Source of the DNA: Chitinophagaceae bacterium
GTDB taxonomy: Bacteria; Bacteroidota; Bacteroidia; Chitinophagales; Chitinophagaceae
Assembly (NCBI GenBank): GCA_022843585.1
Contig: JALHNJ010000006.1
Coordinates: 1 to 64,000 of the forward strand
Direction: 5' to 3'
Length of the DNA: 64,000 nucleotides
Position 1 is the stretch's first letter; each line of letters starts with the position of its first letter. The position numbers were made by a program, and so were the translations under genes. Below are positions 139-22,222 of this stretch, in pieces. The notes under the pieces were generated by a model. That model was not told where the DNA came from. It did no database searches and saw only the letters and a list, made by a program, of their open reading frames with translations.

Positions 139-732
139 ATGATTTACGCATATATCAGAGTTAGTACAGAAAAGCAAACAATCGAAAATCAGCGGTACGA
201 AATTTTACAATTTGCTGGAGCAAAGGATTTAATAATCAACAAATGGTTTGAAGAAACTATAAGTGCATCTAAAAAAATTGAAGAAAGAACTTTCAGTACT
301 GTGCTAAAGAAATTAAAGGCAGATGATATACTTATTGTTTCAGAAATATCAAGAATGGGAAGGAATTTAATGCAGATTATGAGTATCCTTCATCTTTGCA
401 TGGAACGAAAAGCAATAGTGTATGCAGTAAAAGAAGGGTATGAACTGGGTGATAATATCAACTCTAAGGTATTGGCATTTGCATTCGGATTATCTGCTGA
501 AATTGAAAGAAATCTTATTTCCCAAAGAACAAAAGAAGCCTTGGCAAGATTGAAAGCTGAAGGTAAAAAATTAGGAAGGCCATGCGGTAGTAGGAAAAAG
601 AATCCCAAGCTTCTGTCGCATAGCGAATTTATACGTAACAAAGTTTCCGAGGGAGCAAAGCAGATTGAAATAGCTAATGCATTAAAAGTGCACCGGCACA
701 CTGTTAAAAAGTGGATTGCAGAATACATTTGA
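139..732 (+). CDS. Small serine recombinase (resolvase/invertase family)
   Basis: Small serine recombinases cut DNA with a serine nucleophile for inversion or resolution. The 197-residue length and layout fit the resolvase/invertase class: the N-terminus reads IYAYIRVSTEKQ, placing the nucleophile at Ser9. A long helix with AEIERNLISQRTKEAL follows, then the GRP linker, and a C-terminal helix-turn-helix near GAKQIEIANALKVHRHTVKKW. It resembles the Bacteroides Mpi-type DNA invertases. It is probably not the element's integrase, because large serine integrases are much longer and the element end lies in a tRNA gene, which suggests a tyrosine recombinase outside the window. A short GATAAG/CTTATC inverted repeat lies upstream at 77-96. 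Its target (invertible promoter or resolution site) is not evident in the window. Confidence 0.9.
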   Translation: MIYAYIRVSTEKQTIENQRYEILQFAGAKDLIINKWFEETISASKKIEERTFSTVLKKLKADDILIVSEISRMGRNLMQIMSILHLCMERKAIVYAVKEGYELGDNINSKVLAFAFGLSAEIERNLISQRTKEALARLKAEGKKLGRPCGSRKKNPKLLSHSEFIRNKVSEGAKQIEIANALKVHRHTVKKWIAEYI

Positions 733-5270: not shown

Positions 5271-5663
5271 ATGAATGCAGAGAAATCAAATCTTACCAGG
5301 AAGGTGACGATACGTTTTAAGCCGGAGGAATACACTAAGGTTAGTGTTTCTTTTAAGACTACCACCAAAAAGAAACTTAGCGAATACATCCGATATGTGT
5401 TGCTGGAAAAACCAGTGACGGTTTATACCCGTGACCAGTCTGTGGATGAATTGATGGCAGAACTGGTACTGCTTCGGAAAGAACTATCTGCTATTGGTAG
5501 CAACTTCAATCAACTCGTAAAAAGACTGCATACGGCAAGCCATTTTCAGGAAATCAAATCACTGGTTTTACAAACTGAAAACGATCAGAAAAAGTTTCTT
5601 GAAAAGACGGGCGAAATCAATTTAAAAATAAGTGAATTGTCAGGCCAATGGTTGCAAGAATAA
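5271..5663 (+). CDS. mobA: Relaxosome accessory (mobilization) protein
   Basis: A 130-residue protein whose N-terminus (LTRKVTIRFKPEEY) looks like a ribbon-helix-helix DNA-binding segment, followed by a helical region typical of MobC/MobA-type plasmid mobilization proteins (ELVLLRKELSAIGSNFNQL, the conserved GxNxNQ-like signature). Such proteins bind oriT and help the relaxase open the strands. Its 3' end overlaps the relaxase start by 16 bases, indicating translational coupling. The symbol follows Bacteroidota element usage and naming varies between elements. Confidence 0.8.
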   Translation: MNAEKSNLTRKVTIRFKPEEYTKVSVSFKTTTKKKLSEYIRYVLLEKPVTVYTRDQSVDELMAELVLLRKELSAIGSNFNQLVKRLHTASHFQEIKSLVLQTENDQKKFLEKTGEINLKISELSGQWLQE

Positions 5664-6910
5664 ATACCGGAAAAAGTATCAGCAAGGCACTTAACTATAA
5701 CGAAAAAAAAGTGCAACAGGGCACAGCAGAAATACTGTCAGCCATTAATTTTTTAAAGGATGCGGATAAAATGAATTTTTATGAAAAGCTGGGGATGTTT
5801 GAAAAACTCACTACGTTGAATGAACGAACCACCACTAATACCCTGCATGTGTCGCTCAATTTTGATCCTTCCGAAATTCTTGCAAACGAAAAATTGATTG
5901 CTGTTGCAGAAAGTTATATGAAACGGATTGGTTTTGGCGACCAGCCTTTTTTGGTGTACCGGCATTTTGATACAGGACATCCGCATATCCATATCGTCAG
6001 CACCAATATTCAGCGGGATGGTAACCGTATCTCCATGCACAATATGGGACGCAATCAATCTGAAGTTGCCCGAAAAGAAATTGAGGTTGAATTCGGGCTG
6101 GTAAAAGCAGAGAGTAAAAAGCTAATGGCGGGTGCTGTTTTAAAACCCATCAGTGTACAGAAAATAAATCCTGGCAGGAGGTCAACCAAAGCCGCCATCT
6201 CCAATATACTGGGCCTCGTTATTCCGCAGTATAAATATTGTTCGCTGGCGGAACTCAATGCTGTTTTAAAATTATACAATGTGGTGGCCGACAGGTGCGG
6301 GGAAGATTCTCATACCTACAAACACAATGGTTTATTGTACCGGGTGCTGGATGAAAAAGGAAATAAGGTTGGCACTCCTATTAAGGCGAGTTTGTTTTAT
6401 ATGAAACCAACGCTCAAAAATCTAGGGCAGCGGTTTGCTGAAAATGAACATTTAAAACAACCTTATGCCAAAAGGTTGAAGACGGCGATTGATTATGTGT
6501 TGCTTAAAAAACCCGGTGCTGGTTTATCGCAATTGGTAAACGAGTTGAATAAGGAAAGAATCAGTTTGGTTTTACGGCAGAACAAGGAAGGGATTATTTA
6601 CGGTATCACGTATGTGGATCATCAAACCAAAACCGTGTTCAACGGAAGCGATTTGGGTAAAGCGTACAGTGCTAAAATGATACTGGAGCGTACACATCCC
6701 GGTGCTGCGGGAGTCAGCATTGATTTGGCTGGTGAAAAGAAAAATTCCCGGCAATCCGAAGATGTTGCACAGGCGGCAGGAGTTGCTAAAGTGCAGCCCG
6801 GTGAATTAAATATACCGGACATACTTCATTCAACCGCTGGGGCAAATAATCCCATTCCTTTTCAACTGAAGAAAAGAAAACGTAAAAGAAAAAAACAATT
6901 AAAATTTTAA
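5648..6910 (+). CDS. mobB: Relaxase (MOBP-type mobilization nuclease)
   Basis: The relaxase nicks oriT and stays covalently bound to the transferred strand. The N-terminus (ARINTGKSISKALNYNEKKV) carries the conserved tyrosine at about residue 17, and near residues 104-115 the three-histidine metal site reads RHFDTGHPHIHIVSTN. Both are signatures of the Bacteroidota relaxase/mobilization nuclease family (PF03432). The 420-residue length is normal. The C-terminus is strongly basic (KKRKRKRKKQ), suited to DNA binding. It overlaps the accessory gene upstream and abuts the coupling-protein gene downstream, so the three form one operon. Confidence 0.92.
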   Translation: MVARINTGKSISKALNYNEKKVQQGTAEILSAINFLKDADKMNFYEKLGMFEKLTTLNERTTTNTLHVSLNFDPSEILANEKLIAVAESYMKRIGFGDQPFLVYRHFDTGHPHIHIVSTNIQRDGNRISMHNMGRNQSEVARKEIEVEFGLVKAESKKLMAGAVLKPISVQKINPGRRSTKAAISNILGLVIPQYKYCSLAELNAVLKLYNVVADRCGEDSHTYKHNGLLYRVLDEKGNKVGTPIKASLFYMKPTLKNLGQRFAENEHLKQPYAKRLKTAIDYVLLKKPGAGLSQLVNELNKERISLVLRQNKEGIIYGITYVDHQTKTVFNGSDLGKAYSAKMILERTHPGAAGVSIDLAGEKKNSRQSEDVAQAAGVAKVQPGELNIPDILHSTAGANNPIPFQLKKRKRKRKKQLKF

Positions 6911-6913
6911 GTG

Positions 6914-8899
6914 ATGAATACTGGTGAGAATGAACAGGGGTTGAGAAAGATTACAGACATGACAAGGCTGATGAGCATTGTTGTACTGGCCTTGCATTTT
7001 TATTACTACTGTTACCAGGTGTTTAAGCAGTGGGAACTGACCGCAGAAATTTCTGACCGGTTGCTGAGTAACATTCAAAATACAGGATTGTTCCGCCAAT
7101 TCAATAATTCAAAATTGATTGCACTGGCACTGCTCATTATATCGTTATTCGGTGCCAGGGGAAAGAAAGATGAAAATATCAATCATAAAACTGCGTTCGC
7201 CTATATCATTACAGGCACACTCCTTTATTTTTTAAGCTATTTCAGTTTACATTTTCCGTCGGCATTGCAGACCCGTGCCATTACTTATATGTTGATCACC
7301 GCTATAGGTTATATACTCATACTTACCGGCGGCAACCTGATATCACGGGTTATCCGGCAAAAACTAAACAACAAAGATATTTTCAATAAGGAAAATGAAA
7401 CCTTTCCGCAGGAAGAGCGGTTGCTGCAGAATGAATACTCCATTAACCTGCCGGCCGAGTATCATCTGAAAGGAAAGGTGCGTAAAAGCTGGATTAATAT
7501 TATCAATCCCTTTCGTTCATTGTTAGTACTTGGTTCGCCCGGTGCCGGTAAGTCTTATTTTGTTATACGGCATGTTATCACGCAGCATATCCGCAAAGGC
7601 TTTTGCATGTTTGTATATGATTTTAAATTCGATGATCTTTCCATCATTGCTTATAACCATTATTTAAAATGCCGCCATCTTTATAAAACTCCTCCGCAGT
7701 TTTATGTCATCAATTTTGAAGACCTCTCCCGGACACATCGTTGTAATCCGCTGGATAAGGAAAACATGTTGGACATTACCGATGCGTCTGAATCTGCCCG
7801 TACCATACTGATGGGTCTTAACAGGGAATGGATTAAACGTCAGGGTGATTTTTTTGTGGAGTCGCCTATTAATTTTCTGACAGCCATTATCTGGTTTCTC
7901 CGTCGCTACAATGATGGAGAGTTTTGTACGTTGCCGCATGTCATTGAACTGATGCAGGTAGAGTATGATAAATTGTTCACCATCCTGAAGACTGAAAAAG
8001 AAATCGAAGCCCTGATCAATCCTTTTGTATCGGCTTATATGAATGATGTGATGGAACAACTGGAAGGACAAATTGCAGCTGCTAAAGTGGCGATGGCGAG
8101 ACTGTCATCACCCCAACTTTATTATGTGCTCTCGGGGAATGATTTTACACTTGATATCAATAACCCTAATGAGCCAAAGATTGTATGCATGGGCAATAAC
8201 CCGCAGAAGATACAGGTATATGGAGCTGTCCTTTCTTTGTACGTGTCCCGGCTGATCAAAATGGTGAATAAAAAGGGGATGCTGAAATCAAGCCTTGTCT
8301 TTGATGAATTTCCAACGATTTACCTCAACAATATGGACAGCCTGATAGCCACTGCCCGGAGCAATAAGGTTGCCACTACACTGGGTGTCCAGGATTTCAG
8401 CCAGTTGAAGAAAGATTACGGGAAAGACCAGGCCGATGTTATTATGAATATTACCGGGAATATTATTTCCGGGCAGGTAACCGGCGAAACCGCCAAACAG
8501 CTTTCCGAAAGGTTCGGTAAGATCATGCAGGACCGTACCAGTCTTTCCATTAACCGGACGGATACTTCGGTCAGTAAATCCAAGCAATTAGATACCGCCA
8601 TCCCTGCCTCCAAAATAGCGGCTTTAAGTTCAGGGGAGTTCGTAGGTATGGTAGCAGACGATCCGGGCCAGAAAATCGATCTGAAAGCCTTTCACGGGGC
8701 TATTTTGAACGACCACGAAGCCCTGAAGAAGGAACAGGATCAGTATAAGCGAGTGCCGGTAGTCCGGCAGGTTACTCCGGCCATTGTCCAGCTTAATTAT
8801 GGCCAGATAAAACAGGAAATCGAGGACTTGGTGAATGCGGAAATGGAAAGGATTATGAACGATCCGGGGATGGCCGGAACGGTGCTGAGAAAGAATTAG
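6914..8899 (+). CDS. mobC: Type IV coupling protein (TraG/VirD4-like)
   Basis: This is the ATPase that links the relaxase-DNA complex to the mating channel. Four hydrophobic segments fill residues 20-145, then the Walker A motif GSPGAGKS lies at about 208-215 and the Walker B motif LVFDEFPTIY near 463. The later region (TGETAKQLSERFGK, then ALSSGEFVGMVADDP) matches TraD/TraG-type coupling proteins of Bacteroidota elements. The start is ATG 6914; a GTG directly before it at 6911 is in frame. It follows the relaxase stop codon without a gap. No tra (mating-pore) genes are present in the window, so transfer would need genes to the left or a helper. Confidence 0.9.
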   Translation: MNTGENEQGLRKITDMTRLMSIVVLALHFYYYCYQVFKQWELTAEISDRLLSNIQNTGLFRQFNNSKLIALALLIISLFGARGKKDENINHKTAFAYIITGTLLYFLSYFSLHFPSALQTRAITYMLITAIGYILILTGGNLISRVIRQKLNNKDIFNKENETFPQEERLLQNEYSINLPAEYHLKGKVRKSWINIINPFRSLLVLGSPGAGKSYFVIRHVITQHIRKGFCMFVYDFKFDDLSIIAYNHYLKCRHLYKTPPQFYVINFEDLSRTHRCNPLDKENMLDITDASESARTILMGLNREWIKRQGDFFVESPINFLTAIIWFLRRYNDGEFCTLPHVIELMQVEYDKLFTILKTEKEIEALINPFVSAYMNDVMEQLEGQIAAAKVAMARLSSPQLYYVLSGNDFTLDINNPNEPKIVCMGNNPQKIQVYGAVLSLYVSRLIKMVNKKGMLKSSLVFDEFPTIYLNNMDSLIATARSNKVATTLGVQDFSQLKKDYGKDQADVIMNITGNIISGQVTGETAKQLSERFGKIMQDRTSLSINRTDTSVSKSKQLDTAIPASKIAALSSGEFVGMVADDPGQKIDLKAFHGAILNDHEALKKEQDQYKRVPVVRQVTPAIVQLNYGQIKQEIEDLVNAEMERIMNDPGMAGTVLRKN

Positions 8900-9267: not shown

Positions 9268-9289
9268 TAAATTTGATTCTAAACAGGAG
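9268..9289 (+). promoter_or_regulatory. fic promoter -7 box and ribosome binding site
   Basis: TAAATTTG (9268-9275) is a perfect -7 box, giving a start near 9280. AGGAG at 9285-9289 is an unusually good Shine-Dalgarno for this phylum and sits five bases before ATG 9295. It therefore favours ATG 9295 over the in-frame GTG at 9289. Confidence 0.55.
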
Positions 9290-9294
9290 TGTTA

Positions 9295-10779: not shown

Positions 10780-10944
10780 TAATTGCGTACACATAGTATT
10801 TCACGACCAAATAATTAAACGTTTGCTATTGAGGTATGAAATAATCTATATTTAATTTTAAGAAAAAGAATTTCTCAAAGCGATCCAAGGATGTTGATTT
10901 ACTGGTACCGTCGAAAATGGATTGATCTAAACTAATTGCTGACC

Positions 10945-12687
10945 ATGATTACTTATCTCACCATTAATTATTCGGACATCTATCCTGGTGAAAAGCCAAC
11001 GGTTACAGAACTTTTAGCTGGTATAAGTTCAAAGATTATCGTTGTGGTGATGGCAATGATTAATGCCGAATTATCCGATGAGAAAGATACAGAAGAAGTT
11101 CAAAAAAGATTAACGCTTTGGGTCGTAAACCAATTTCCCAGGCATGAGGCGGAGTTCGTTTTTAGAAAATTAAAAGCATTTGAGAGCAGAACAAATTCTC
11201 CCGTGGCGCTATGGGGCAAACGTTATGCCCTTCAAATGATGAAGAATGAATTTCTGAATTACAGAGACTTTGCGAAAACAACTAACACCCCAGAAGAATC
11301 TGTTCGTATATTCAAAGCATATCTTCTTACGGCTGAGGAATTAAATGAAAAAGATTCGGAGGAGTTAAAGGCGATTACTGGTGGGGAAGTGGTAGAAAAT
11401 GACCCCTATTTCTTTGAAAAACTAGTATGGCCTTTTTTATTAAAACAATTTGATACTAATAACAGGGTGAATCCCGTATCGCAAATGTTTAAGCTTTTTG
11501 CTTTAATAAAGTATTCGATCTCCCACCCGGAACTGCTTCAATCGTGGAAGACCTTTATTAGTATGAATGGATTTGAAACGCTGCGATCTTACCTTGGGAG
11601 CGTTAATTTTTTGGTTGGCATAGCGCAAATAAGAAACCCTGAAAAAGACTTAAGAGTGTTCTCGTGGATTAACGCCGATCACACAGCACCTCATCTCCAT
11701 AATCTTGCATTTGATCGAAATGAATTTGTTGCCAATCCGGCAAAGCAAGTTGATTTTCTGGGAATCAGAGAGCGGCCGTTATTGCAAACGGATACGAAAG
11801 AATTTGTCGCATTGGATTTGGATTTTCTAACGAATAAAGCCTACAACGGTCCTCTGTTTGATATGTATAGTCAAACCGATATGGCTAATACAACTTCTTT
11901 TAAAACCTTTCCTGATTTTAAAGGTCATATCGCTACTGAAGTAAGCGAGAAAATTGTTTTTAAGGGAATTCTTACTAAGCTGTTTCAAAAGAAATATGTT
12001 CAGCTGCATTTTGATGATGAAGGAAAAGATAATTATCCAGACTGTTATATTCGAATAGGAAAAAAGGTGTTTCTTATAGAGTTTAAAGATTACCTATTCC
12101 CAGGTAAATTGGTGGATCAGTATTCATTTGAGGAAATTAAAAAGCATATTGATTTAAAGTTTGTCAAAAATCAAAACGGAAAGAACAAAGGCATCAGCCA
12201 GATTATCGAACACCTGAAAATCCTATCTAAAGGGGGATTCGAGTTTGATAAGTTCAATGGAACCAAGATTGAAATTTACCCGATAATCGTTCATACCAAT
12301 TTTACTTATCAAATGCCGGGTATAAACTATTACCTAAATAAGCAGTTTGGAGATTTGGTACAACAAAATGCTAACCTAAAGAACCTTTCTATTGAACCGC
12401 TGGTATTATTTGATCTTGACAGTTTGTTTGAGTTTTTACAAATTGAACATATGGATTTGAAAATGCTGGAAGGTTTCATAACACGTTACCATCATATTCT
12501 GGAAAACAGATTGAAACGTTTTCAGCAAAGAGCATCGCAGGATAACTTCGTCAGGGCTCGGGCAAGTTTTGATGAAATTTTTTCAACTATTATGGAAAGT
12601 GAATTAAAATATCTCCCTGTACCCCGGCGAGTGGATGTTTTTCTAAGCAGTATAGGAATGACAAACGAGACCCTTGATGCTTTTTAG
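10945..12687 (+). CDS. Large protein with PD-(D/E)XK nuclease-like core
   Basis: A soluble protein of about 580 residues without a family I can name. Near residues 364-381 it contains PDCYIRIGKKVFLIEFKD, the D...ExK pattern of PD-(D/E)XK nucleases (Asp, then EFK). An upstream helix (KIVFKGILTKLFQKKY) could provide the preceding acidic/helical element. The flanking N-terminal 350 residues are helical and may be a sensor or binding region. ATG 10945 is preferred to an in-frame TTG at 10936. It is the first of three successive plus-strand genes with nuclease-like motifs, which suggests an uncharacterised defence module. Confidence 0.65.
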   Translation: MITYLTINYSDIYPGEKPTVTELLAGISSKIIVVVMAMINAELSDEKDTEEVQKRLTLWVVNQFPRHEAEFVFRKLKAFESRTNSPVALWGKRYALQMMKNEFLNYRDFAKTTNTPEESVRIFKAYLLTAEELNEKDSEELKAITGGEVVENDPYFFEKLVWPFLLKQFDTNNRVNPVSQMFKLFALIKYSISHPELLQSWKTFISMNGFETLRSYLGSVNFLVGIAQIRNPEKDLRVFSWINADHTAPHLHNLAFDRNEFVANPAKQVDFLGIRERPLLQTDTKEFVALDLDFLTNKAYNGPLFDMYSQTDMANTTSFKTFPDFKGHIATEVSEKIVFKGILTKLFQKKYVQLHFDDEGKDNYPDCYIRIGKKVFLIEFKDYLFPGKLVDQYSFEEIKKHIDLKFVKNQNGKNKGISQIIEHLKILSKGGFEFDKFNGTKIEIYPIIVHTNFTYQMPGINYYLNKQFGDLVQQNANLKNLSIEPLVLFDLDSLFEFLQIEHMDLKMLEGFITRYHHILENRLKRFQQRASQDNFVRARASFDEIFSTIMESELKYLPVPRRVDVFLSSIGMTNETLDAF

Positions 12688-12779
12688 AGCTAAATTACTG
12701 ACGTGCAATTTTTTATAACTTGTGCACTATCAAAGTAATATATATTTTTTTTTGCCGAATGCAGGTGTCGCACGATTTG

Positions 12780-12787
12780 TACCTTTG
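12780..12787 (+). promoter_or_regulatory. -7 box giving a near-leaderless transcript
   Basis: TACCTTTG is a perfect Bacteroidota -7 box ending only five bases before the ATG at 12793. If the box starts near -12, transcription would begin at or next to the start codon, so the mRNA would be leaderless or nearly so. Confidence 0.45.
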
Positions 12788-12792
12788 CGGAC

Positions 12793-13509
12793 ATGAAGCA
12801 GGTAACTATAGCTGATGAATTTTTTGAAAACAAGCCTGAGCTTTTAAACGAAATTCACTCGTTTGAAAGAAGGAGAAAATTGCAGTTAATGGATAAATTG
12901 CAAAAGGAAGAAGATGCTGTTAACTTCTTCTCTACACTCGCTGAGATCCGCACTGGATTGTTCTTTGATCCTTTATGCAGTGCCCTGCGCTATAATGTCC
13001 CGCTGAACGGCAAGCGACCTGACTGGCTACTTACGCTAACCGGTCAGAACATTCTTTGTGAAGTGCTGCGGCTCAATACGCCGGAAGAGGAAAACAAAGC
13101 CAGCATGGAACGAAACCGTGAACTCGCCAGATTCCAGCAGCAAAACCCTGGTGTGCCGATCATGGAGTATAGTGGAGCAAAGGTCATAGAGACAGAATTT
13201 CTTTGCGGAGCGCAGTGGAAACTGCAAGTAAAGGAAGAAAAGTATCGCGGCATCATCACACGTCATAAACTGCCGTATATCATTTGCGTAAACCCCTCCC
13301 TACAAACCTATATAAACAAAACCGATCTGTCTGATTTTCTAACGGGTCGGCATGGATTTTTTGCCACCGATGACAATTTCGGGCGCAACATCACCGGTGT
13401 GCTGCTGCAAGGATATTTTGCTGGGCATTGGAGTTATTTTCCGAATAAACGAGCGGAGTATAAGCTGACGGATGAAAATGAAAAGGTGATGGGGGAGTGG
13501 AGAAGTTGA
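12793..13509 (+). CDS. Hypothetical protein with degenerate PD-(D/E)XK-like motif
   Basis: A 238-residue protein beginning MKQVTIADEFFENKPE. The stretch KRPDWLLTLTGQNILCEVLRLN at about residues 73-94 has the beta-hairpin spacing of a PD-(D/E)XK core (PD, then E), but the lysine of ExK is replaced (EVL), so it may be inactive or a variant. A long helical N-terminus precedes it. It is coupled to the next gene, overlapping its GTG start by 13 bases. Probably a subunit of the same complex or system; function unknown. Confidence 0.6.
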   Translation: MKQVTIADEFFENKPELLNEIHSFERRRKLQLMDKLQKEEDAVNFFSTLAEIRTGLFFDPLCSALRYNVPLNGKRPDWLLTLTGQNILCEVLRLNTPEEENKASMERNRELARFQQQNPGVPIMEYSGAKVIETEFLCGAQWKLQVKEEKYRGIITRHKLPYIICVNPSLQTYINKTDLSDFLTGRHGFFATDDNFGRNITGVLLQGYFAGHWSYFPNKRAEYKLTDENEKVMGEWRS

Positions 13510-15233
13510 AAGTGTTTACTATTACTGATGCAATTACCGTTCTAAGAGGTGAAAAGGACGCGGAACCAAAATACCGGACTGAAGTTTCAGCGCGTATTGT
13601 CCATGAATACGGTAAAGGTCCTTATGATCCGGAGGTACAGAAAAAAGTATTTACATCCTTCCAGCAATATTTCATAGATAAATTTGAAAAAGTTTGCGAA
13701 GCAGAAACATCTTTTACATTTTACTGTGAAATTTTTATCTTAAATGAACAAGCTACTGACTTGCGCCGGTCAGAACTTTACCATAGTTTACCGACAGGTA
13801 TTGACCAACAGTATGTATCTGTTTACCGCCGGGTATTGAAAATGATCCTGGAAAAAGGATGTGATATTGAAATGAAGCGAGGGGAAAAGAAAGGCCTTGC
13901 ATTCATCAAAAGAATTCAACCTATCCTGAATGATCTGCTGTATCTCGGTGAAATGATCTTTGATTTTACTGAATCCTTCGCAGAGTTTTCCATGGTTGAA
14001 GGAATTTCGAAGATAATATTTGACGAGAATGATTTGTATAAACAAGTAAGGGAACCGCATCTAGATTATGTGTTTCATAACATCGCGACGGATATGCAAA
14101 AAAACCGTGACGAGTACATCATCGATCCCTCCGGTTCTGAAGACTTCAAAGCAGCCATCCAGCAAAGTTTCGGAATTGATTATGGTAATATTGAACTCTT
14201 AATAGCGGCTTTATATCATAAATTTAAGCTGGAGCCACCCGATTGCTTATCTGCTGACGCAGACAATTTTTTTACTGACGCTGCAAACATCTGTGATGTC
14301 GGGCGGGAGTCCATCAAGAAATTTTTATCAGGTCTTATATTGACCCGGAGCAATAAGATGGCCTTAGCAGAGCTGGTGCGCAAACCCTATTCGATGAACC
14401 GGTTCCTGTATCGTCCATTTCTTGAATGGAGCATAAATGAGGTGCCGTATTTCATATGCGGCATTTACAGCCTCGATGAAGCCAAGAACAGCCTCATCCT
14501 TAACGCAATACCTTGGGGCAAGTATCCGCAAGAATGGAAAGATGTTCCTGGAATCAAAGCCTATGTCCACCGAAAGCATAAGGAACATGACGATTGGTTG
14601 GATGACCAAGTAGAGAAAATAATACTTGGGTGCGGGTTACTGTATGAGCGAGGCGTTGAAAAAATTCATACAAAGGAGAAATCATATTCACTTATGGAAA
14701 AGTCGCTTGGGGAAATTGATTTTCTGAGCATCAGCCCGGCAACTAAAAAACTTCTTGTCACCGAATGCAAGCACCTGCTGGGAAGATATGATATGGTGAA
14801 CTGGAAACAGGATCATGATCATTTTACGGTTGACGGCTCAAAACCCGGTTACAATACTAGGCTTGCTGCCAAAGTCCAATGGATCAGGGAGCACATTAAG
14901 CAGGTTGAAGAACATTTCCGGATAAAGTATAAGGATGACTCCATCAGTCTTGACGACTATCTTGTAGAAGGAGTATTCGTGATTAATACACCTACCTTTT
15001 ATATGTTTAACGCACATCACCGGATTTATACCTACCATGACCTTGAAGATGTATTAACCGGTCACCATATTGATCCTGTTTATACACTTGTTGATGAAAC
15101 GGAAGATTCTATTGCAACCTATTGGGTCAAGTACCCTTATTTCGCCAAGCGTGAATTGATGTATTTTGACGCTGGTGATGATGACGATGGAGAAGTGGAT
15201 AAATATGGCTTCCCGATCAAGAAAAGCGAGTGA
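13497..15233 (+). CDS. Large protein with NERD/Mrr-like nuclease motif
   Basis: A 578-residue soluble protein starting at a GTG that overlaps the preceding gene by 13 bases. Near residues 405-425 it reads GEIDFLSI followed by LLVTECKHL, the classical GEIDxL...ECK arrangement of the PD-(D/E)XK superfamily as in NERD and Mrr-type nucleases. The first 400 residues are unlike anything I recognise. The C-terminus is acidic (DAGDDDDGE). With the two genes before it, this forms a three-gene set with nuclease-like cores of decreasing to increasing quality. A role in restriction of foreign DNA is inference. Confidence 0.65.
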   Translation: MEKLKVFTITDAITVLRGEKDAEPKYRTEVSARIVHEYGKGPYDPEVQKKVFTSFQQYFIDKFEKVCEAETSFTFYCEIFILNEQATDLRRSELYHSLPTGIDQQYVSVYRRVLKMILEKGCDIEMKRGEKKGLAFIKRIQPILNDLLYLGEMIFDFTESFAEFSMVEGISKIIFDENDLYKQVREPHLDYVFHNIATDMQKNRDEYIIDPSGSEDFKAAIQQSFGIDYGNIELLIAALYHKFKLEPPDCLSADADNFFTDAANICDVGRESIKKFLSGLILTRSNKMALAELVRKPYSMNRFLYRPFLEWSINEVPYFICGIYSLDEAKNSLILNAIPWGKYPQEWKDVPGIKAYVHRKHKEHDDWLDDQVEKIILGCGLLYERGVEKIHTKEKSYSLMEKSLGEIDFLSISPATKKLLVTECKHLLGRYDMVNWKQDHDHFTVDGSKPGYNTRLAAKVQWIREHIKQVEEHFRIKYKDDSISLDDYLVEGVFVINTPTFYMFNAHHRIYTYHDLEDVLTGHHIDPVYTLVDETEDSIATYWVKYPYFAKRELMYFDAGDDDDGEVDKYGFPIKKSE

Positions 15234-15262: not shown

Positions 15263-16057
15263 TCAATTTTCCATTTCTGAATTCAATTCCTTATCAGCTA
15301 ATAAATCAAACGGGTTTATCCGGCCAGTATACTCAGAATTAACTGTAAAGGGAGAAAACCCCTCTTTTTCAAATCTCTCGAAGAATGAAGGCATGGCCTG
15401 CTTATAGGTTTCATATACGACAGAATGTTTCTGTTTAACACGTTCATTCGGATGATTTTGTTTGAGGAATTCAATTTCACGAAAAAAACGAAGATCTTCA
15501 TCTATTCTGTGATAAGTATCCGTTTCTTCCAGCATACTCAAGGGAATCGGAAGTTTGCCGGCAGTATCGTTATAAAGATTTCTCAACGATTGGGTCAGTA
15601 AAACAAAATCATATTTTTCAGTAAAGGGAACTTTATCAAATACTACGATATCGTTTGATAAACGTTTATCTACATATAAGCCAAAGCCTTCCATCAGTGA
15701 TTCATCATGATAGGCATCTATTAGCGCCAAGCCATAGTAGGCCTGAATCCTTTGCAATTCAGAGAAATTAAATTCGCCAAAAGTGAGTATTCCCTTAAAA
15801 TATACATTAATCAAGGAAAGTCTGTAAAAAAGTTCTTGTGCGTATTCAATAAGGAAAGTGCAATAGTAATGTGTTGGGCGGCTATCGTCTTTGTTGAATA
15901 TCAAAATTGTATCCGAAAAGACCACAGTTTGCAGCGCGAAATGTTTGAAGACTTTCAGGGTGTCAAAGATTGTAAATATGTTATCGACTTTCGATGGATT
16001 GGTTCTGACGAGATGTTCAAACCCCAGAATATCGATATATAGAAATGCACGTTTCAA
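15263..16057 (-). CDS. Class III nucleotidyl-cyclase-like protein
   Basis: The 264-residue protein shows the layout of class III nucleotide cyclase folds: YIDILGF at residues 7-13 with Asp9, then FSDTILIF with Asp49 (the two metal-binding aspartates), then FKGILTFGEF and YYGLALIDAYHDES, which match the strand and the helix that carry the Asn/Arg of active cyclases. Those Asn and Arg positions appear substituted, so catalysis is uncertain. It is the last gene of a minus-strand operon headed by the SIR2-Argonaute gene. A signalling-nucleotide role, as in Pycsar-type defence, is a hypothesis. The only direct evidence is the motif pattern. Confidence 0.55.
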   Translation of the reverse strand: MKRAFLYIDILGFEHLVRTNPSKVDNIFTIFDTLKVFKHFALQTVVFSDTILIFNKDDSRPTHYYCTFLIEYAQELFYRLSLINVYFKGILTFGEFNFSELQRIQAYYGLALIDAYHDESLMEGFGLYVDKRLSNDIVVFDKVPFTEKYDFVLLTQSLRNLYNDTAGKLPIPLSMLEETDTYHRIDEDLRFFREIEFLKQNHPNERVKQKHSVVYETYKQAMPSFFERFEKEGFSPFTVNSEYTGRINPFDLLADKELNSEMEN

Positions 16058-16116: not shown

Positions 16117-16686
16117 TTAGTTTAACCAAACCGTGATTGTAACTTTAACGAAAATTGGTTTGCTCGCATCGATGTCATCAAGTTTTAGATTATTTACATC
16201 AAAGCCTTCTCCACCACCGTTCTGAAGCATCTTTGCAAAATAGTCGTATGCTTCTTTTCCATGATTGAGATCTACGACAGGAAAGATATATTCTGTTCCC
16301 TGGATCATTCTGTTTATTTCCCCATTGTTTGTTAATCGGATATTGGCTTCATAACCTTTTACACCGTTCCCGATCTCTGGCTTTACCTGTACGTCAGTCC
16401 AAGGCGTACCTTTTCGTTTCTGATCTTCTTTGATGACATTGTACATAAATTCAAACGGCAAATATTCTGACTCAGGGTTCAGGTTCCTGGATGTAGCATA
16501 TTTTAACAATTGGTGGAATTCTCTTTCAGCAAATCTATACGCTTTCTGTGCTTTAAAATATTCCCCTAATTCGGTCGCGTCGCCAAATCCATTTGTAAAA
16601 GAAATCTTTTGCGTCGCATCATGCATAACTTTTGTTGCCTGTTCATACGCTTTATAAATCTCTGTATATTTTTCTTGATAAGTCAT
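16117..16686 (-). CDS. Hypothetical protein in the SIR2-Argonaute operon
   Basis: A 189-residue soluble protein with a helical, charged N-terminus (YQEKYTEIYKAYEQATKVM) and a beta-rich C-terminus (ANIRLTNNGEINRMIQG). No family is recognised. It begins 39 bases after the SIR2-APAZ-Argonaute stop codon and ends 59 bases before the cyclase-like start, all on the minus strand, so the three are probably cotranscribed. It could be an accessory or regulatory subunit. Confidence 0.55.
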   Translation of the reverse strand: MTYQEKYTEIYKAYEQATKVMHDATQKISFTNGFGDATELGEYFKAQKAYRFAEREFHQLLKYATSRNLNPESEYLPFEFMYNVIKEDQKRKGTPWTDVQVKPEIGNGVKGYEANIRLTNNGEINRMIQGTEYIFPVVDLNHGKEAYDYFAKMLQNGGGEGFDVNNLKLDDIDASKPIFVKVTITVWLN

Positions 16687-16725: not shown

Positions 16726-19700
16726 TTAAATAAAATACCGATAATCGTAGGTTACGCCTTCCTTTTTATTCAGGAGTCTGCCAATACGAGCAATAACGTT
16801 TGAAGAGTTCACAGTCGCAGGCAACTGACTATAGAGATCGAATGAATTCCAATTCATTTTCGTAAGACCAAGGATTTCAGTCGCAATCAAACCGAGATCA
16901 CCTTTCCCAAAATGTTTTTTGATCCGTAATGGTCCAGGTATAAATCTTCCTCCCAGATAAAATTTGAAGTATTGATTCTCTACTGATGGTACCACTCCAT
17001 GTGTCCAGAGCAATGCTTCGGTTGTATTTAACAAAATGCATGTTCCCCGGGGTAACGCATAATTATCTATATCGGGAGTACCATCCGGTTTCAGTTTAGA
17101 GGCAACATACCTCATATCCTCTTCAAACGTGACTTCAATCAAATCTATATCCTTTATAGAGTCATTCCCAAGCAAACTATCTTTTAGTCCGGCAATCTCA
17201 TCTTTTGTGAAAAATGTTCTTTTATGAATAACGACTCGTTTCGGAAATTCATCCATCGTTCGGTAAAACATATCAATGATAGAGGTTCCAAATTTGTAGG
17301 CGTCGTTGTATGAAAGATGAGGATGTTTCTGCCGATCCCAGAAAAGCTGATCCTCTACTTTTGAGAGGCGGTATTTCAGACCTTGTCCCCTTGAGTTATA
17401 AATATGGCTACACCCAAGGACGATTTCCGATTGATCTCCCTTTCCGGCAACACTGTACCCAATGCCGGCGAATGCTGTGTCCTTGTCCAATGAATCCAAT
17501 ACCCATGGTGTTCGCAAACTCTTGACGTAATAAGACAGTGAAAGCCACCAGTTGATCTGGCACTGCAAAGGATCATCCAATGTATCTTCTTTAATAAACT
17601 GAGTGGCAATTCCTTTTTCTGCGCAATATGCTTTGATGAAGTCATGCAAATCGTAATGCTCATTGTCAATGTCATAGGAAGTGTACTCCAACCAGCGAAG
17701 GGGGATATAGATGACAAGAACCTTATGAACTCCTTTCGCAACCTGCTGATCAATCGCTGCCATTAACTGGATTCTTAAATCAGTTGAAGCTGTCTTAATG
17801 CTCTCCAACTGTGTTGGATCGTTCATGTATGACCAGTTTTCGGTTCCGGGATCAGGAATGATTAAACGTGTTGCAAATGCTTCCTGAAAACCTGGGAATG
17901 ATAACAGATAGGCTTTGTTGACGCCTTTTGAATCCACTGCGCTAAGATGGCGCGACAGAAACGTTTTAAATTTTGGTGAATCAGCTGCCGGGCAAATAAC
18001 TCCCAGGTTTACTGAACCACTTTCAAAAAGACTATTTCCAAATGAAAAATCATACGGTTTATTGGTAGATACACCTCTCATCGGATGGAAATCACGCGGA
18101 GGCTGTTTCATCCCGGCAATTTTGGGTGAAAATATCAGTTCAGGTTCCGGGTACTGAATACCTCTGTGCTGAATCCATTTCCTGTTAAATTTATCACTCA
18201 GTTCAATATTGGATTGGCGTTGCGTCATAATGCCCGCAAATGCGTTATCCCTGTCAATTTTAAATATAAGCCCTGAACCAGACCGGAAAGGGTACTCTAT
18301 TTCTATCATTCCACCTCCTGTAGAAAACAGAAGTGCCCGCCATTCTTTTATGTAGTCGTTGAATTTACTATTCCATATTTTTTCAAAGTATGTTCGTCCA
18401 ATTTCCTGGAAGATTTCTTTTTCAATTTTCCCTTCTCCGGTTTCCCTGGTTACTTTAAAGTCCGGGTTAAGTGACAAGAAATAGCTCTGTCCATCGCTCG
18501 AAAGCGAAAGTTTAATTGCGGGATGGGTTTGATATATTACATCATTGATTCTTTTTTGTGTGGCTGTTTCCTTTTTCCAAATAAGATCCCTTTTATCGCT
18601 CTCTAAATTTGACGCACTTGCGAGTAAATCAGTAATGCCGGATAAAAGCAGACTATGGAATGCAGTATCTTTTTGCAGATTAAATCCTGTTAAAGGGATT
18701 CTTGTTATTTTGCCTTTCATTCTTGCTGAAAAAATCCTATTAATATCTGTCAGTGTTCCGATAGCGTATATCATCCCCTTATGTGGTACAGCAATAATTC
18801 TTTCTTTTGCTGTAAGGCCACGCAATGTTGACCAGGGCTTTTCACCTTCTATGAATGGATATTCAAACTGAAATACTTCCTGCGGAAATCCTACCCTGAA
18901 AGAATTGCTTTTTATGACTGTGTCCAATCTTGTTTGGGAAATGGTGAATGGTGTGGTGTCTATACCGTCGGTAGTAACGCTTATGAGCTCGCGATAGCGG
19001 TCCGAAAAGGATTGCTGAGCTTTTGAACATGCGCTTGTAAGTGACACAAACAATTTATCAAAACCGTCGGTTGGAATATAATATGCTGTTCTTCCATTTG
19101 CCCTGGCCACTTCAATCAATTTTGCTACTGAAGATGGTATGTTGCGGCCGTACCCGCACCAGTACAGTCTACCAGCCCCTTGTTGCTGATAAGTAGCGGT
19201 TAGCGCTTCCATAATAGATTCATCTCTTCCACCAAATCCTGACACAATAAGGTGTTTGTCCTTTAAATAGGTGATCATTTGCTGGCGGAATGTTGCATCC
19301 TGTGTGGCGAGTTCGCCTGTCGTGTTTTTTAAGGGACCGTATTTATAGTCTCCATGAAGTTTTATAAATAGCAGTTCTTTGCTATTCTGTACGCGGAAAA
19401 TTCTTTCAATCGTATCTAGTGTTATATCAATGGGGAGTAAGTTCGCTGTTATTGCAGCATTCAACCCAAGATCATCAAAATTTGTTGTCCATACTGATTG
19501 GATCAACCCCATCTCATGAAGCAAGCACAATAATTTATATCCAATTGAAGGTTGTTTTTTTTCACAAATGCGTTGAAAAAATTTTCTTCTGTCGTCTTCG
19601 ATGGGATAGCATTCTTCCGCATAGAAGGAATATTCCTGGCTCGAATTTTCTGTCGGGTACGAGCCTTCTGTATCTAACCATTTTTGAATTTGTGCTTTTA

Positions 19701-19908
19701 CCTGATCGGATTTTATGTCTAACTTTTGCGCACTGTGACTATGCTTGGATGTATATAGATTTTTTTTCCAGTCCCAAATACAGTCGGCTGCTGAAGGTAT
19801 TCCTGAAGTAATCGAAGCACCTGCTCCTAACAGGACGGAAAAGACATCATTTTTACTTATTTCTACAGAGCGGATAAACTGGTCCTGTTCTAAAATTAAA
19901 TTACTCAT
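16726..19908 (-). CDS. Single-chain SIR2-APAZ-short Argonaute (fused SPARSA)
   Basis: This 1,060-residue protein joins parts normally encoded by two genes. Residues 20-300 are a SIR2 domain: VLLGAGASITSGIPSA (GAGAS at 28-32), WTTNFDDL, IKLHGDYKYG and SGFGGRDESI supply the NAD-site glycines, Asn and His. Residues of about 330-600 resemble APAZ (FQFEYPFIEGEKPW onward). From about 600 it reads as a short Argonaute: PEPELIFSPK, a MID-like stretch with QINWWLSLSYYVKS, and a PIWI region ending ILGLTKMNWNSFDLY. The PIWI catalytic acids look absent (AFAGIGYSV and VVIHKRTFF), as expected for short Argonautes. Known SPARSA systems sense invading DNA with a guide and deplete NAD. Single-chain versions are known. 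Confidence 0.85.
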   Translation of the reverse strand: MSNLILEQDQFIRSVEISKNDVFSVLLGAGASITSGIPSAADCIWDWKKNLYTSKHSHSAQKLDIKSDQVKAQIQKWLDTEGSYPTENSSQEYSFYAEECYPIEDDRRKFFQRICEKKQPSIGYKLLCLLHEMGLIQSVWTTNFDDLGLNAAITANLLPIDITLDTIERIFRVQNSKELLFIKLHGDYKYGPLKNTTGELATQDATFRQQMITYLKDKHLIVSGFGGRDESIMEALTATYQQQGAGRLYWCGYGRNIPSSVAKLIEVARANGRTAYYIPTDGFDKLFVSLTSACSKAQQSFSDRYRELISVTTDGIDTTPFTISQTRLDTVIKSNSFRVGFPQEVFQFEYPFIEGEKPWSTLRGLTAKERIIAVPHKGMIYAIGTLTDINRIFSARMKGKITRIPLTGFNLQKDTAFHSLLLSGITDLLASASNLESDKRDLIWKKETATQKRINDVIYQTHPAIKLSLSSDGQSYFLSLNPDFKVTRETGEGKIEKEIFQEIGRTYFEKIWNSKFNDYIKEWRALLFSTGGGMIEIEYPFRSGSGLIFKIDRDNAFAGIMTQRQSNIELSDKFNRKWIQHRGIQYPEPELIFSPKIAGMKQPPRDFHPMRGVSTNKPYDFSFGNSLFESGSVNLGVICPAADSPKFKTFLSRHLSAVDSKGVNKAYLLSFPGFQEAFATRLIIPDPGTENWSYMNDPTQLESIKTASTDLRIQLMAAIDQQVAKGVHKVLVIYIPLRWLEYTSYDIDNEHYDLHDFIKAYCAEKGIATQFIKEDTLDDPLQCQINWWLSLSYYVKSLRTPWVLDSLDKDTAFAGIGYSVAGKGDQSEIVLGCSHIYNSRGQGLKYRLSKVEDQLFWDRQKHPHLSYNDAYKFGTSIIDMFYRTMDEFPKRVVIHKRTFFTKDEIAGLKDSLLGNDSIKDIDLIEVTFEEDMRYVASKLKPDGTPDIDNYALPRGTCILLNTTEALLWTHGVVPSVENQYFKFYLGGRFIPGPLRIKKHFGKGDLGLIATEILGLTKMNWNSFDLYSQLPATVNSSNVIARIGRLLNKKEGVTYDYRYFI

Positions 19909-19965: not shown

Positions 19966-20211
19966 AAAATGGCCATTTTTTGGGTGGTTTTGGCAGGTTG
20001 TTATCATACCTGTTGGGGTGTGCGCCGTTTTGTCTTATTCGCTGTGTTTAATTAGTTTTATAAGTACCTTCTTTTCGAAATTTTATGTCTAAGGCCTTGG
20101 TATTTATGGATTAATGAAAAGTCTTTTAGTCTGGCCATATATATTATTATAGCTGGCCAAAATTGCTATATGTTGTAATAAAATGGCCAAGTATAAAATT
20201 ATAACTGGCCA
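19966..20211. repeat. Five TGGCCA palindromes, operator-like array
   Basis: TGGCCA occurs at 19970-19975 (within the perfect 14-base palindrome AAAATGGCCATTTT), 20132-20137, 20154-20159, 20184-20189 and 20206-20211. The last four are spaced 22, 30 and 22 bases apart. The last is centred about 30 bases before the predicted ATPase transcription start, and the first about 43 bases before that of the Argonaute operon. This suggests a shared operator bound by a dimer that contacts successive helical faces. Regulator unknown. Confidence 0.55.
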
Positions 20212-20226
20212 AAATAGTGTATTTCG

Positions 20227-20252: not shown

Positions 20253-21692
20253 ATGAATACCATAATCGGGCGGGCAGAAGAGCAAAAAATCCTCCATTTA
20301 AAAAAGGCCTCCAATAAAGCAGAATTAATAGCGGTTCTGGGGCGCCGGCGGGTTGGCAAAACCTACCTCATCCGGAACTATTTCGCAAAGGAAATAGCCT
20401 TCGAACTAACAGGGATGCATGATACAACGCTCAAGACGCAACTTCAGAATTTTGCCCTTGCCATGCAAAAAGCTACTAAAAATCCAGTACAGGCGGCTGC
20501 ACCTGCGACTTGGCTGGAAGCTTTTACGATTTTAGATTCTTACATTGATACACTACCGACCACCCAGCCTGTTGTTATCTTTCTGGATGAGTTCCCCTGG
20601 CTACACACTGCCAAATCCAATTTCCTGGAAGCATTTGATCATTGGTGGAACAGTTCGGCTTCCACCAGAAATCATTTAAAAGTAGTGATCTGCGGATCTG
20701 CTGCGTCCTGGATGATCGATAAAGTGGTGGAAGCAAAAGGAGGATTACATAACCGTGTGACGCAGACGCTCCGCCTGATGCCATTCAATCTTAACGAAAC
20801 GGAAGATTATCTGAAGAGCCAGGGTGTCATACTCGATCGTTACGCAATACTACAGTTGTACATGGCTATGGGAGGAATACCGCATTATCTCCAGCATATC
20901 GCTCCCGGAGAAAGTGCAGCCCAATGTATCGACCGGATGTGTTTCACCAAAGACGGGGCGCTCACGAAAGAATTTACCTTTTTATATGACTCCCTGTTTG
21001 ATCATTCCTCGCAGCATGAATTGGTCATACGGGCACTGGCAGATAACGGAGCGGGACTGACGAGGCAGGAAATTATACAGGCAACAAAACTTAGTTCCGG
21101 TGGTGGTATCACCCGGGTACTGAAAGAACTGGAAGAATCCGGTTTTATTAAGCCCTATATTCCGTTTCAAAAAACAGCTAACGAAACGATTTACAAACTA
21201 TCGGATGAATACTCCCTGTTTTATTTGAAGTTTATTGCAGGAGCTACAGCCATGGGTCCCGGCACCTGGCTTTCTCAATTCATGACACAATCCTACAAAA
21301 GCTGGAGTGGATTCGCCTTTGAATCGGTTTGCCAGAAACATACGGACCAGATAAAAGAGGCACTGAAAATAGGAGGTGTGCAAACAGGCATTTCTACCTG
21401 GAGACATGTACCACCTAAAGGAAGTAAGATGAAAGGGGCACAAGTCGATCTGCTGCTCGACCGAAAAGATAATATCATCAACCTTTGTGAAATGAAATTT
21501 TACAAAGACGAGTACACGATCGATAAAGAATATGCGGACGACATCGATAGAAAGGTGCAGATCTTTAAAAAGGAAACAAAAATAAAGAGTACGATTTTTC
21601 CAACTATGATCACCACCTACGGCGTAAAAAAAAATAGTTATTACACTGGCCGGATACAAAATGAAGTTGTCATGGATGACTTGTTTAAATAA
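20253..21692 (+). CDS. AAA+ ATPase with DUF234/PD-(D/E)XK-like C-terminus
   Basis: A member of the widespread archaeal-type AAA+ ATPase family. Walker A is LGRRRVGKTYLIRNY at about residues 29-43 and Walker B is VVIFLDEFPWL. A winged-helix segment follows (LTRQEIIQATKLSSGGGITRVLKELEE, shown in part). The C-terminus (GAQVDLLLDRKDNIINLCEMK) carries the D...ExK pattern of the DUF234 nuclease-like domain, and the end ITTYGVKKNSYY...DDLF is typical. Members are often toxin- or defence-associated but biochemically poorly characterised. It is the last gene of the element before the tRNA remnant. Confidence 0.8.
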   Translation: MNTIIGRAEEQKILHLKKASNKAELIAVLGRRRVGKTYLIRNYFAKEIAFELTGMHDTTLKTQLQNFALAMQKATKNPVQAAAPATWLEAFTILDSYIDTLPTTQPVVIFLDEFPWLHTAKSNFLEAFDHWWNSSASTRNHLKVVICGSAASWMIDKVVEAKGGLHNRVTQTLRLMPFNLNETEDYLKSQGVILDRYAILQLYMAMGGIPHYLQHIAPGESAAQCIDRMCFTKDGALTKEFTFLYDSLFDHSSQHELVIRALADNGAGLTRQEIIQATKLSSGGGITRVLKELEESGFIKPYIPFQKTANETIYKLSDEYSLFYLKFIAGATAMGPGTWLSQFMTQSYKSWSGFAFESVCQKHTDQIKEALKIGGVQTGISTWRHVPPKGSKMKGAQVDLLLDRKDNIINLCEMKFYKDEYTIDKEYADDIDRKVQIFKKETKIKSTIFPTMITTYGVKKNSYYTGRIQNEVVMDDLFK

Positions 21693-22160: not shown

Positions 22161-22185
22161 GTGTTCGAATCCTGTCTTCCCGACT
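22161..22185 (+). other. attR: 3' fragment of a tRNA gene, probably tRNA-Pro
   Basis: TTCGAATCCTGTCTTCCCGA (22164-22183) is a T-loop, 3' T-stem strand, acceptor strand and discriminator base. The bases before it (22141-22163) do not form the 5' T-stem partner or a cloverleaf, so the tRNA is incomplete. The acceptor strand CTTCCCG predicts a tRNA starting CGGGAAG, which I associate with Bacteroidota tRNA-Pro. Integration at a tRNA 3' end leaves exactly this duplication at the distal end, so the intact tRNA should lie on the plus strand left of the window. Confidence 0.7.
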
Positions 22186-22222
22186 AAAAGCTGTAAGTCA
22201 TTGACTTGCAGCTTTTGTTTTT
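22186..22222 (+). terminator. Intrinsic terminator after the tRNA remnant
   Basis: AAAAGCTGTAAGTCA (22186-22200) pairs with TGACTTGCAGCTTTT (22202-22216), with one G-T wobble, and is followed by GTTTTTT. This was probably the tRNA terminator, separated from its tRNA by the element. Confidence 0.7.

What the first reader, a model, noticed from the sequence alone, without database searches (positions are those of the whole stretch)
16726..19908. Single-chain SIR2-APAZ-short Argonaute (fused SPARSA) in a Bacteroidota mobile element
Sequence shows SIR2 motifs, an APAZ-like middle and a short Argonaute end with an inactivated PIWI site in one 1,060-residue chain. Established knowledge: most SPARSA systems use separate Sir2-APAZ and Ago subunits, and fused forms are a minority. 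Here the fused form sits on a conjugative or mobilizable element, which would spread it between hosts.
Basis: partly seen in the sequence, partly recalled or inferred. Interest (0 to 1): 0.85.

Follow-up and report, generated by a model that had tools for sequence, protein, structure and literature searches.

The report
Single-chain SIR2-APAZ-Argonaute defence protein
A bacterial conjugative element carries an intact gene for a known type of immune protein that is thought to use a small guide to spot invading DNA and then destroy the cell's NAD; it is a good but fairly ordinary member of a family already described.

Summary
Window 16726-19908 (-) is one intact 1,060-aa frame. Residues 7-530 align with split SIR2-APAZ subunits, and 590-1054 with the Geobacter SPARSA Argonaute of the PDB. 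Most NADase residues checked are kept (one is Lys for Arg), the MID pocket is of the short-pAgo HK type, and PIWI lacks catalytic acids. The architecture is not new: PADLOC holds a full-length model (1,380 bits, residues 3-1060), and a 2018 survey reports 106 single-chain APAZ short pAgos on one branch, 102 with SIR2 (passages). One scan gave 31 related loci. The 31 fused rows of a 46-row tree group together, next to split SPARSA. No fixed neighbour gene was found. The mobile-element claim is confirmed: the window holds attR (22163-22185, tRNA-Pro 3' end); a matching tRNA-Pro junction beside an integrase and Tra genes lies on another contig of the genome, and a congener has the empty site. Mob/Tra relatives also lie in the flanks of 8 of 31 related loci.

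The parts
16726..19908 (-). Single-chain SIR2-APAZ-short Argonaute (fused SPARSA), 1,060 aa: SIR2 about residues 1-300, APAZ about 320-555, MID-PIWI about 585-1060
   Evidence: domain borders are approximate, judged from the alignments
22163..22185 (+). attR: 23 nt shared with the intact tRNA-Pro(TGG) junction; right end of the integrated element
   Evidence: the same 23 nt stand at the 3' end of tRNA-Pro on own contig C11, and window 22163-22218 equals 56 nt of the empty site of congener G058; intact tRNA-Pro in G058 and on C11
5271..5663 (+). MobC_2/NikA-like mobilization protein (MobA position in the module)
5648..6910 (+). Relaxase, Bacteroidota MobB-like
   Evidence: PF03432 above cut-off; NF041325 MobB over 1-416 at 301 bits, under its curated cut-off of 400
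6911..8899 (+). Bacteroidota MobC (TraG/VirD4-type coupling protein)
   Evidence: NF041326, 1,176 bits against a cut-off of 900
139..732 (+). Serine recombinase (resolvase family) inside the element
16117..16686 (-). 189-aa ORF, 39 nt downstream of the Argonaute gene, same strand; probably co-transcribed cargo, not part of the conserved system
   Evidence: no relative in the 31 homologous loci at E 1e-3 and none in 394 other genomes of the phylum sampled
15263..16057 (-). 264-aa ORF (TTG start as listed), next gene downstream, same strand; cargo, not part of the conserved system
   Evidence: no relative in the 31 loci at E 1e-3; 1 of 394 other genomes sampled has one

Best explanation
This is an intact single-chain SPARSA: a short prokaryotic Argonaute whose effector subunit (SIR2-APAZ) and guide-binding subunit (MID-PIWI) are one polypeptide. 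By homology with Geobacter SPARSA, the MID domain holds the 5' end of a small guide RNA, and the inactive PIWI domain with APAZ (which stands in for the N-L domains of long Argonautes) pairs the guide with invading single-stranded DNA. Pairing then opens the SIR2 pocket, which hydrolyses NAD+, so the cell dies or stops growing before the phage or plasmid can spread. The gene probably works without a partner gene. It is cargo of a Bacteroidota integrative and conjugative element sitting in tRNA-Pro. Shown here: the domains by profile, the kept pocket residues, the grouping of fused forms, the lack of a fixed neighbour, and the element's attR. Inferred: RNA guide, DNA target, NAD+ loss, abortive defence, and that the two contig halves are one element.
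For: The full-length PADLOC pAgo model (PDLC02384) matches residues 3-1060 at 1,380 bits and matches 29 of 29 aligned members. Profile-profile comparison aligns residues 7-530 with 2-555 of 591 of split SIR2-APAZ, probability 99.9%, E 1.8e-36 with two split proteins and 1.8e-37 with three. Geobacter SPARSA Ago aligns with 590-1054. Reading the alignment, Y93, N143 and H185 stand where GsSir2 has Y89, N142 and H186; each is invariant in 29 of 29 members. N142A, H186A and the Y89A/R190A double change remove the NADase activity of GsSir2 (PMC10781750: passages, section 13). MID H755 and K759 (the HK type that PMC6299218 gives to short pAgos), Q770 and K796 are invariant. 31 fused rows lie on one side of a branch (support 99/95) next to 4 split Agos in a 46-row tree. 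No neighbour family keeps a fixed place beside the gene in 30 loci, window included.
Against: Nothing here tests function. R190, one of the two GsSir2 residues of the double change, is K189 here and K in 28 of 29 members; whether Lys serves is untested. PMC10781750 itself argues from simulations that the Asn-His dyad acts on water access, not directly. Promoter- and terminator-like sites occur at the shuffled rate. Two ORFs follow on the same strand with gaps of 39 and 59 nt and could belong to the operon. The tree has long branches (G300 1.77, L020 1.24) and a midpoint root. The element is seen in two halves on separate contigs.
Confidence: 0.92

Rival explanations
1. A three-gene variant: the fused Argonaute works only with the downstream 189-aa and 264-aa proteins, as regulator or second effector.
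For: Same strand, gaps of 39 and 59 nt, so co-transcription is likely. The 189-aa protein has a sub-threshold PAZ match (E 0.012, 16 bits against a cut-off of 28.8).
Against: No relative of either protein in the 31 homologous loci at E 1e-3. The 264-aa protein is found in 1 and the 189-aa protein in 0 of 394 other genomes sampled; on plasmids a weak 264-aa relative sits on 1 record and no 189-aa relative on any. No fixed neighbour within 6 kb in 30 loci.
Confidence: 0.06
2. The protein is a relic or a regulator that no longer acts as an NADase.
For: No functional data; the gene is absent from the 34 congeners searched; GsSir2 R190 is Lys here.
Against: Full length without stops, Y93, N143, H185 and the MID pocket residues kept; the Lys is shared by 28 of 29 members.
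Confidence: 0.03
3. It is a long-B Argonaute with an N-terminal SIR2 domain rather than a short Argonaute.
For: Long-B Argonautes also have inactive PIWI and may use SIR2 effectors (PMC10954474 passages). A profile comparison with 15 Bacteroidota Argonautes of 632-814 aa is significant, as for any Argonaute.
Against: Best PDB matches are short pAgos (170 bits for GsSPARSA Ago against 25 bits for the long 1yvu). The first half aligns with SIR2-APAZ of split SPARSA. The tree joins it to split SPARSA, though long Argonautes were not in that tree. The MID pocket is HK type.
Confidence: 0.01

Closest known systems
Single-chain SIR2-APAZ short pAgos (most of group Ia of Ryazansky et al. 2018, PMC6299218; PADLOC PDLC02384)
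   Same: Same three-part order in one chain, inactive PIWI, HK-type MID; full-length model match of 1,380 bits
   Different: Nothing essential found; 39-57% identity to the 28 relatives aligned, and cargo of a particular element
GsSPARSA (Geobacter sulfurreducens Sir2-APAZ/Ago; PDB 8in8, 8jkz, 8k87)
   Same: Both subunits align along the one chain; pocket residues matched
   Different: Two polypeptides in an operon there, one polypeptide here; R190 there, K189 here
PgAgo and JomAgo, named in PMC10954474 (passages)
   Same: That passage says that some short pAgos form single functional polypeptides with the upstream APAZ-effector, cites these two as examples of short pAgos in the split/single-chain discussion, and supposes no functional difference between forms
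   Different: Not compared by sequence here, and the passage does not say which of the two is fused. The SPARSA paper (doi 10.1038/s41564-022-01239-0) is not held; that it tested a fused Paraburkholderia protein is recalled only
Bacteroidota conjugative transposons of the CTnDOT kind
   Same: TraG, CtnDOT_TraJ, TraM, DUF4138 and tyrosine integrase at the attL end; relaxase and MobC at the attR end
   Different: Sits in tRNA-Pro and carries the fused Argonaute; not compared with CTnDOT itself

Membership tests
Single-chain SPARSA (SIR2-APAZ-short pAgo) | SIR2 domain with NADase residues | tested here: met
   PF13289 SIR2_2 34.1 bits against cut-off 24.5; GAG28-30, Y93, N143, H185, G186, D187 invariant in 29 of 29; match to GsSir2 Y89/N142/H186 read; R190 is K189
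Single-chain SPARSA (SIR2-APAZ-short pAgo) | APAZ domain between SIR2 and MID | tested here: met
   Residues 7-530 align with 2-555 of 591 of split SIR2-APAZ, E 1.8e-36 and 1.8e-37; PADLOC SIR2-PNTD1-PNTD2 models
Single-chain SPARSA (SIR2-APAZ-short pAgo) | MID-PIWI of the short pAgo clade, without PAZ | tested here: met
   no PAZ match in the chain at E up to 1
Single-chain SPARSA (SIR2-APAZ-short pAgo) | PIWI catalytic tetrad lost | tested here: met
   At the place of the first Asp (G-I-D) the chain has G815-I816-G817 and at the R-D-G place K896-R897; G817, K896 and R897 are the same in 29 of 29. The other two places were not pinned down. Canonical motifs are recalled; the 15 yardstick Argonautes also lack these acids, so they give register, not an active control.
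Single-chain SPARSA (SIR2-APAZ-short pAgo) | One polypeptide | tested here: met
   One frame without stops; 28 of 31 related loci alike
Single-chain SPARSA (SIR2-APAZ-short pAgo) | Predicted three-dimensional fold | not testable with these tools
Single-chain SPARSA (SIR2-APAZ-short pAgo) | Guide-RNA and target-DNA dependent NAD+ loss and defence | not testable with these tools
   Needs bench work
Integrative and conjugative element of Bacteroidota | Tyrosine integrase, Tra genes, relaxase and coupling protein, att direct repeat at a tRNA | tested here: met
   the halves lie on contigs C11 and C6
Integrative and conjugative element of Bacteroidota | One continuous element that excises as a circle | not testable with these tools
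   Contig break between C11 and C6; no reads

The most novel reading that the evidence does not exclude
The fused SPARSA is the element's own weapon: a one-gene suicide switch carried by an ICE to guard its host against rival plasmids and ICEs, with the two downstream ORFs as element-specific modulators that keep it quiet during the ICE's own single-stranded transfer.
Probability: 0.1. Interest if true: 0.55.

Novelty: new member of a known kind. Interest (0 to 1): 0.2.

Why it matters
Single-chain SPARSA is one gene, so it is easy to move and express and could help the study of how the two halves signal to each other. The locus adds a clear case of the family on a conjugative element with a defined attachment site, and it raises a testable question: how an element that transfers as single-stranded DNA tolerates a defence that is triggered by single-stranded DNA.

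Tried and rejected
Two literature searches (pAgo, ICE, defence-island and Bacteroid terms; SPARSA, Argonaute, single-chain) listed 12 of 14 and 1 of 1 papers; from titles and abstract beginnings none is about this locus, and I opened none of them for it.

Considered and rejected: a frameshifted or chimeric ORF (relatives have the same length); a conserved partner gene; active PIWI; a PAZ domain in the 189-aa neighbour (below Pfam's cut-off). The shikimate-kinase Pfam match and the enterotoxin, coronavirus-spike and antibody PDB matches (E 0.011 or worse) I take as chance.

Rows dropped and slips: of the 31 loci, L023 (cut by the contig end, 913 aa), L029 (18 stops inside the frame) and L031 (109 aa) were left out of the 29-row alignment; in that alignment the 28 relatives lack their last residue, because I cut one codon too many (seen). 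One search left out L029 and L031. The tree used the 31 fused rows and 15 split rows: all 14 Argonaute-part matches and L037; L038 (E 1.4e-4) was left out; L073 and L008 are almost the same sequence. One search used two split SIR2-APAZ proteins because my filter dropped the third; one search repeats it with three. One search used 15 of the 19 Piwi matches.

Full report
The thing itself. A 1,060-aa frame starts at ATG and runs over window 16726-19908 on the minus strand. Pfam sees SIR2_2 above its cut-off and Piwi below it. PADLOC sees a full-length pAgo model over residues 3-1060 at 1,380 bits, and a SIR2-PNTD1-PNTD2 model over 5-1060 at 645 bits. In the PDB the best sequence matches are the two chains of Geobacter SPARSA: Ago at residues 601-1060 (E 4.4e-49) and Sir2-APAZ at 24-289 (E 1.2e-35). 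With a profile of 29 family members these matches grow to 590-1054 and 19-470.

Domains. Profile-profile comparison with split SIR2-APAZ proteins from other genomes of the phylum aligns residues 7-530 with 2-555 of 591, probability 99.9%; E is 1.8e-36 with two split proteins and 1.8e-37 with three. So the middle is APAZ, and the order is that of the split operon; in G152 the SIR2-APAZ stop and the Argonaute start overlap by 8 bases. The fused chain is in effect the split operon read as one protein.

Active sites. From the printed alignment, Y93, N143 and H185 fall on GsSir2 Y89, N142 and H186. PMC10781750 reports that N142A and H186A lose NADase activity and that the Y89A/R190A double change abolishes it (passages; section 13); the same section argues that the dyad acts on water access and not directly. 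Y93, N143 and H185 are invariant in 29 of 29 aligned members, as are GAG 28-30 and HGD 185-187. R190 is K189 here and in 28 of 29 members, a difference whose effect is untested. In MID, H755, K759, Q770 and K796 are invariant, which is the HK type that PMC6299218 assigns to short pAgos. In PIWI two of the catalytic-acid places hold G817 and R897, the same in 29 of 29; I did not pin down the other two. The canonical motifs are recalled. The 15 Argonautes of 632-814 aa that I aligned lack the acids at these two places as well, so they give register but not an active control. PMC6299218 states that all short pAgos lack the tetrad.

Relatives. One scan of genome contigs gave 31 loci; by record title 22 are Bacteroidota, and the others are Lachnospiraceae or Clostridia, Rhizobium, and MAGs named Sulfuricurvum, Lentisphaeria, Caldilineaceae and Betaproteobacteria. 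28 of the 31 are single frames of 1,032-1,062 aa; the other three are cut, broken or partial. In 395 genomes sampled from the phylum, 25 had a match at E up to 1e-10: 3 are single-chain (the own genome, G075, G300), 14 match by the Argonaute part in frames of 475-551 aa (3 of these with a SIR2 match next door), and 8 match by the SIR2 part only. In a 46-row MID-PIWI tree the 31 fused rows form one side of a branch with support 99/95, next to four split rows, three of which are the ones with a SIR2 neighbour. The tree is midpoint-rooted and has long branches. The result agrees with the single monophyletic branch of APAZ-bearing short pAgos in PMC6299218. None of the 34 congeners searched has the gene, which fits acquisition by transfer.

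Neighbours. The two ORFs downstream on the same strand (189 and 264 aa) have no relative in the 31 homologous loci at E 1e-3. They are rare in the phylum: 0 and 1 of 394 other genomes sampled. Comparing neighbour ORFs of 80 aa or more within 6 kb of the gene in 30 loci, window included, gave no family at a constant place (25 clusters listed). The most widespread clusters cover 4 loci: by position one coincides with the MobB relatives and one with the integrase relatives, and one is the Argonaute itself with an earlier start codon. So the family behaves as a one-gene system.

The mobile element. Among the stretches of congeners that I fetched, similarity to the window begins only right of 22163 (G058) or 22280 (G059). 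In G058 an intact tRNA-Pro(TGG) stands at that place, and window 22163-22218 equals 56 nt of its 3' end and downstream flank. On contig C11 of the own genome an intact tRNA-Pro, identical over 75 nt to that of G058, shares the 23 nt GTTCGAATCCTGTCTTCCCGACT with window 22163-22185 and then continues differently. Beside it on C11 lie a tyrosine integrase and an operon with TraG, TraJ, TraM and DUF4138 proteins (ten ORFs were scanned). The window's left part holds a MobC_2/NikA-like protein, a MobB-like relaxase, a MobC coupling protein and a serine recombinase. Together these look like the two ends of an ICE in tRNA-Pro, with the Argonaute near attR. The two contigs are not joined, so size and continuity are inferred; this genome has four TraM genes, so another pairing cannot be excluded. 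G059 has other genes at the same place, similar to DNA on own contigs C13 and C11, so the site may be an insertion hotspot. Among the 31 related loci, 8 (L001, L002, L005, L006, L007, L009, L012, L013) hold MobB, MobC or TraG/TraM relatives within the fetched flanks of up to 10 kb. On plasmids, at E up to 1e-20, 9 records match at 24-32% identity, 7 of them predicted conjugative; the four that cover both halves carry two annotated genes.

Known or new. PMC6299218 (passages) reports 102 of 106 APAZ-bearing short pAgos with SIR2 in the same protein. PMC10954474 (passages) says that some short pAgos are single functional polypeptides and supposes no functional difference from split ones. The family has a PADLOC full-length model. 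This locus is therefore a new member of a known kind. The mechanism given above is carried over from GsSPARSA (PMC10781750, and abstract and passages of PMC10474274: target ssDNA binding unleashes the NADase without higher-order assembly); it was not tested here.

Noticed in passing
window 20132-20215: Two 32-nt direct repeats (84% alike, 52 nt start to start), each holding two TGGCCA sites 22 nt start to start, lie just upstream of the AAA ATPase ORF at 20253; four of the window's 20 TGGCCA sites fall in these 84 bases. Could be an operator array for that gene.
   Followed up: partly
window 20253-21692 (+): ATPase of PADLOC's candidate defence family PDC-S27 (667 bits, residues 1-478 of 479), divergent from the Argonaute gene and close to attR.
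   Followed up: no
window 10936-15233 (+): Three adjacent ORFs (583, 238, 578 aa) without a Pfam match over cut-off, a PADLOC match at E 0.1 or an NCBIfam match at E 0.01; by eye each has a PD-(D/E)XK-like stretch, which no call tested. A relative of the 583-aa protein (24% identity, E 7e-31) lies 74 nt downstream of the fused Argonaute in L027.
   Followed up: partly
window 9289-10779 (+): Fic-domain protein with a SoFic match (72 bits) and a weak AbiEi-like N-terminal match: further defence-like cargo.
   Followed up: no
G000 contigs C2, C11, C13: Four TraM genes in one genome, so this host probably carries several conjugative elements.
   Followed up: no
L051 7851 onwards (G059): A second congener carries different DNA at the same chromosomal place, similar to own C13 and C11 (on C11 near an AcrB-type gene), with a decayed att-like sequence seen by eye: possible tRNA-Pro hotspot.
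   Followed up: partly
MT837260.1 (H11): An unannotated 7.3-kb phage-labelled record from human stool encodes a relative of residues 3-619 at 40% identity, running almost to its end.
   Followed up: no
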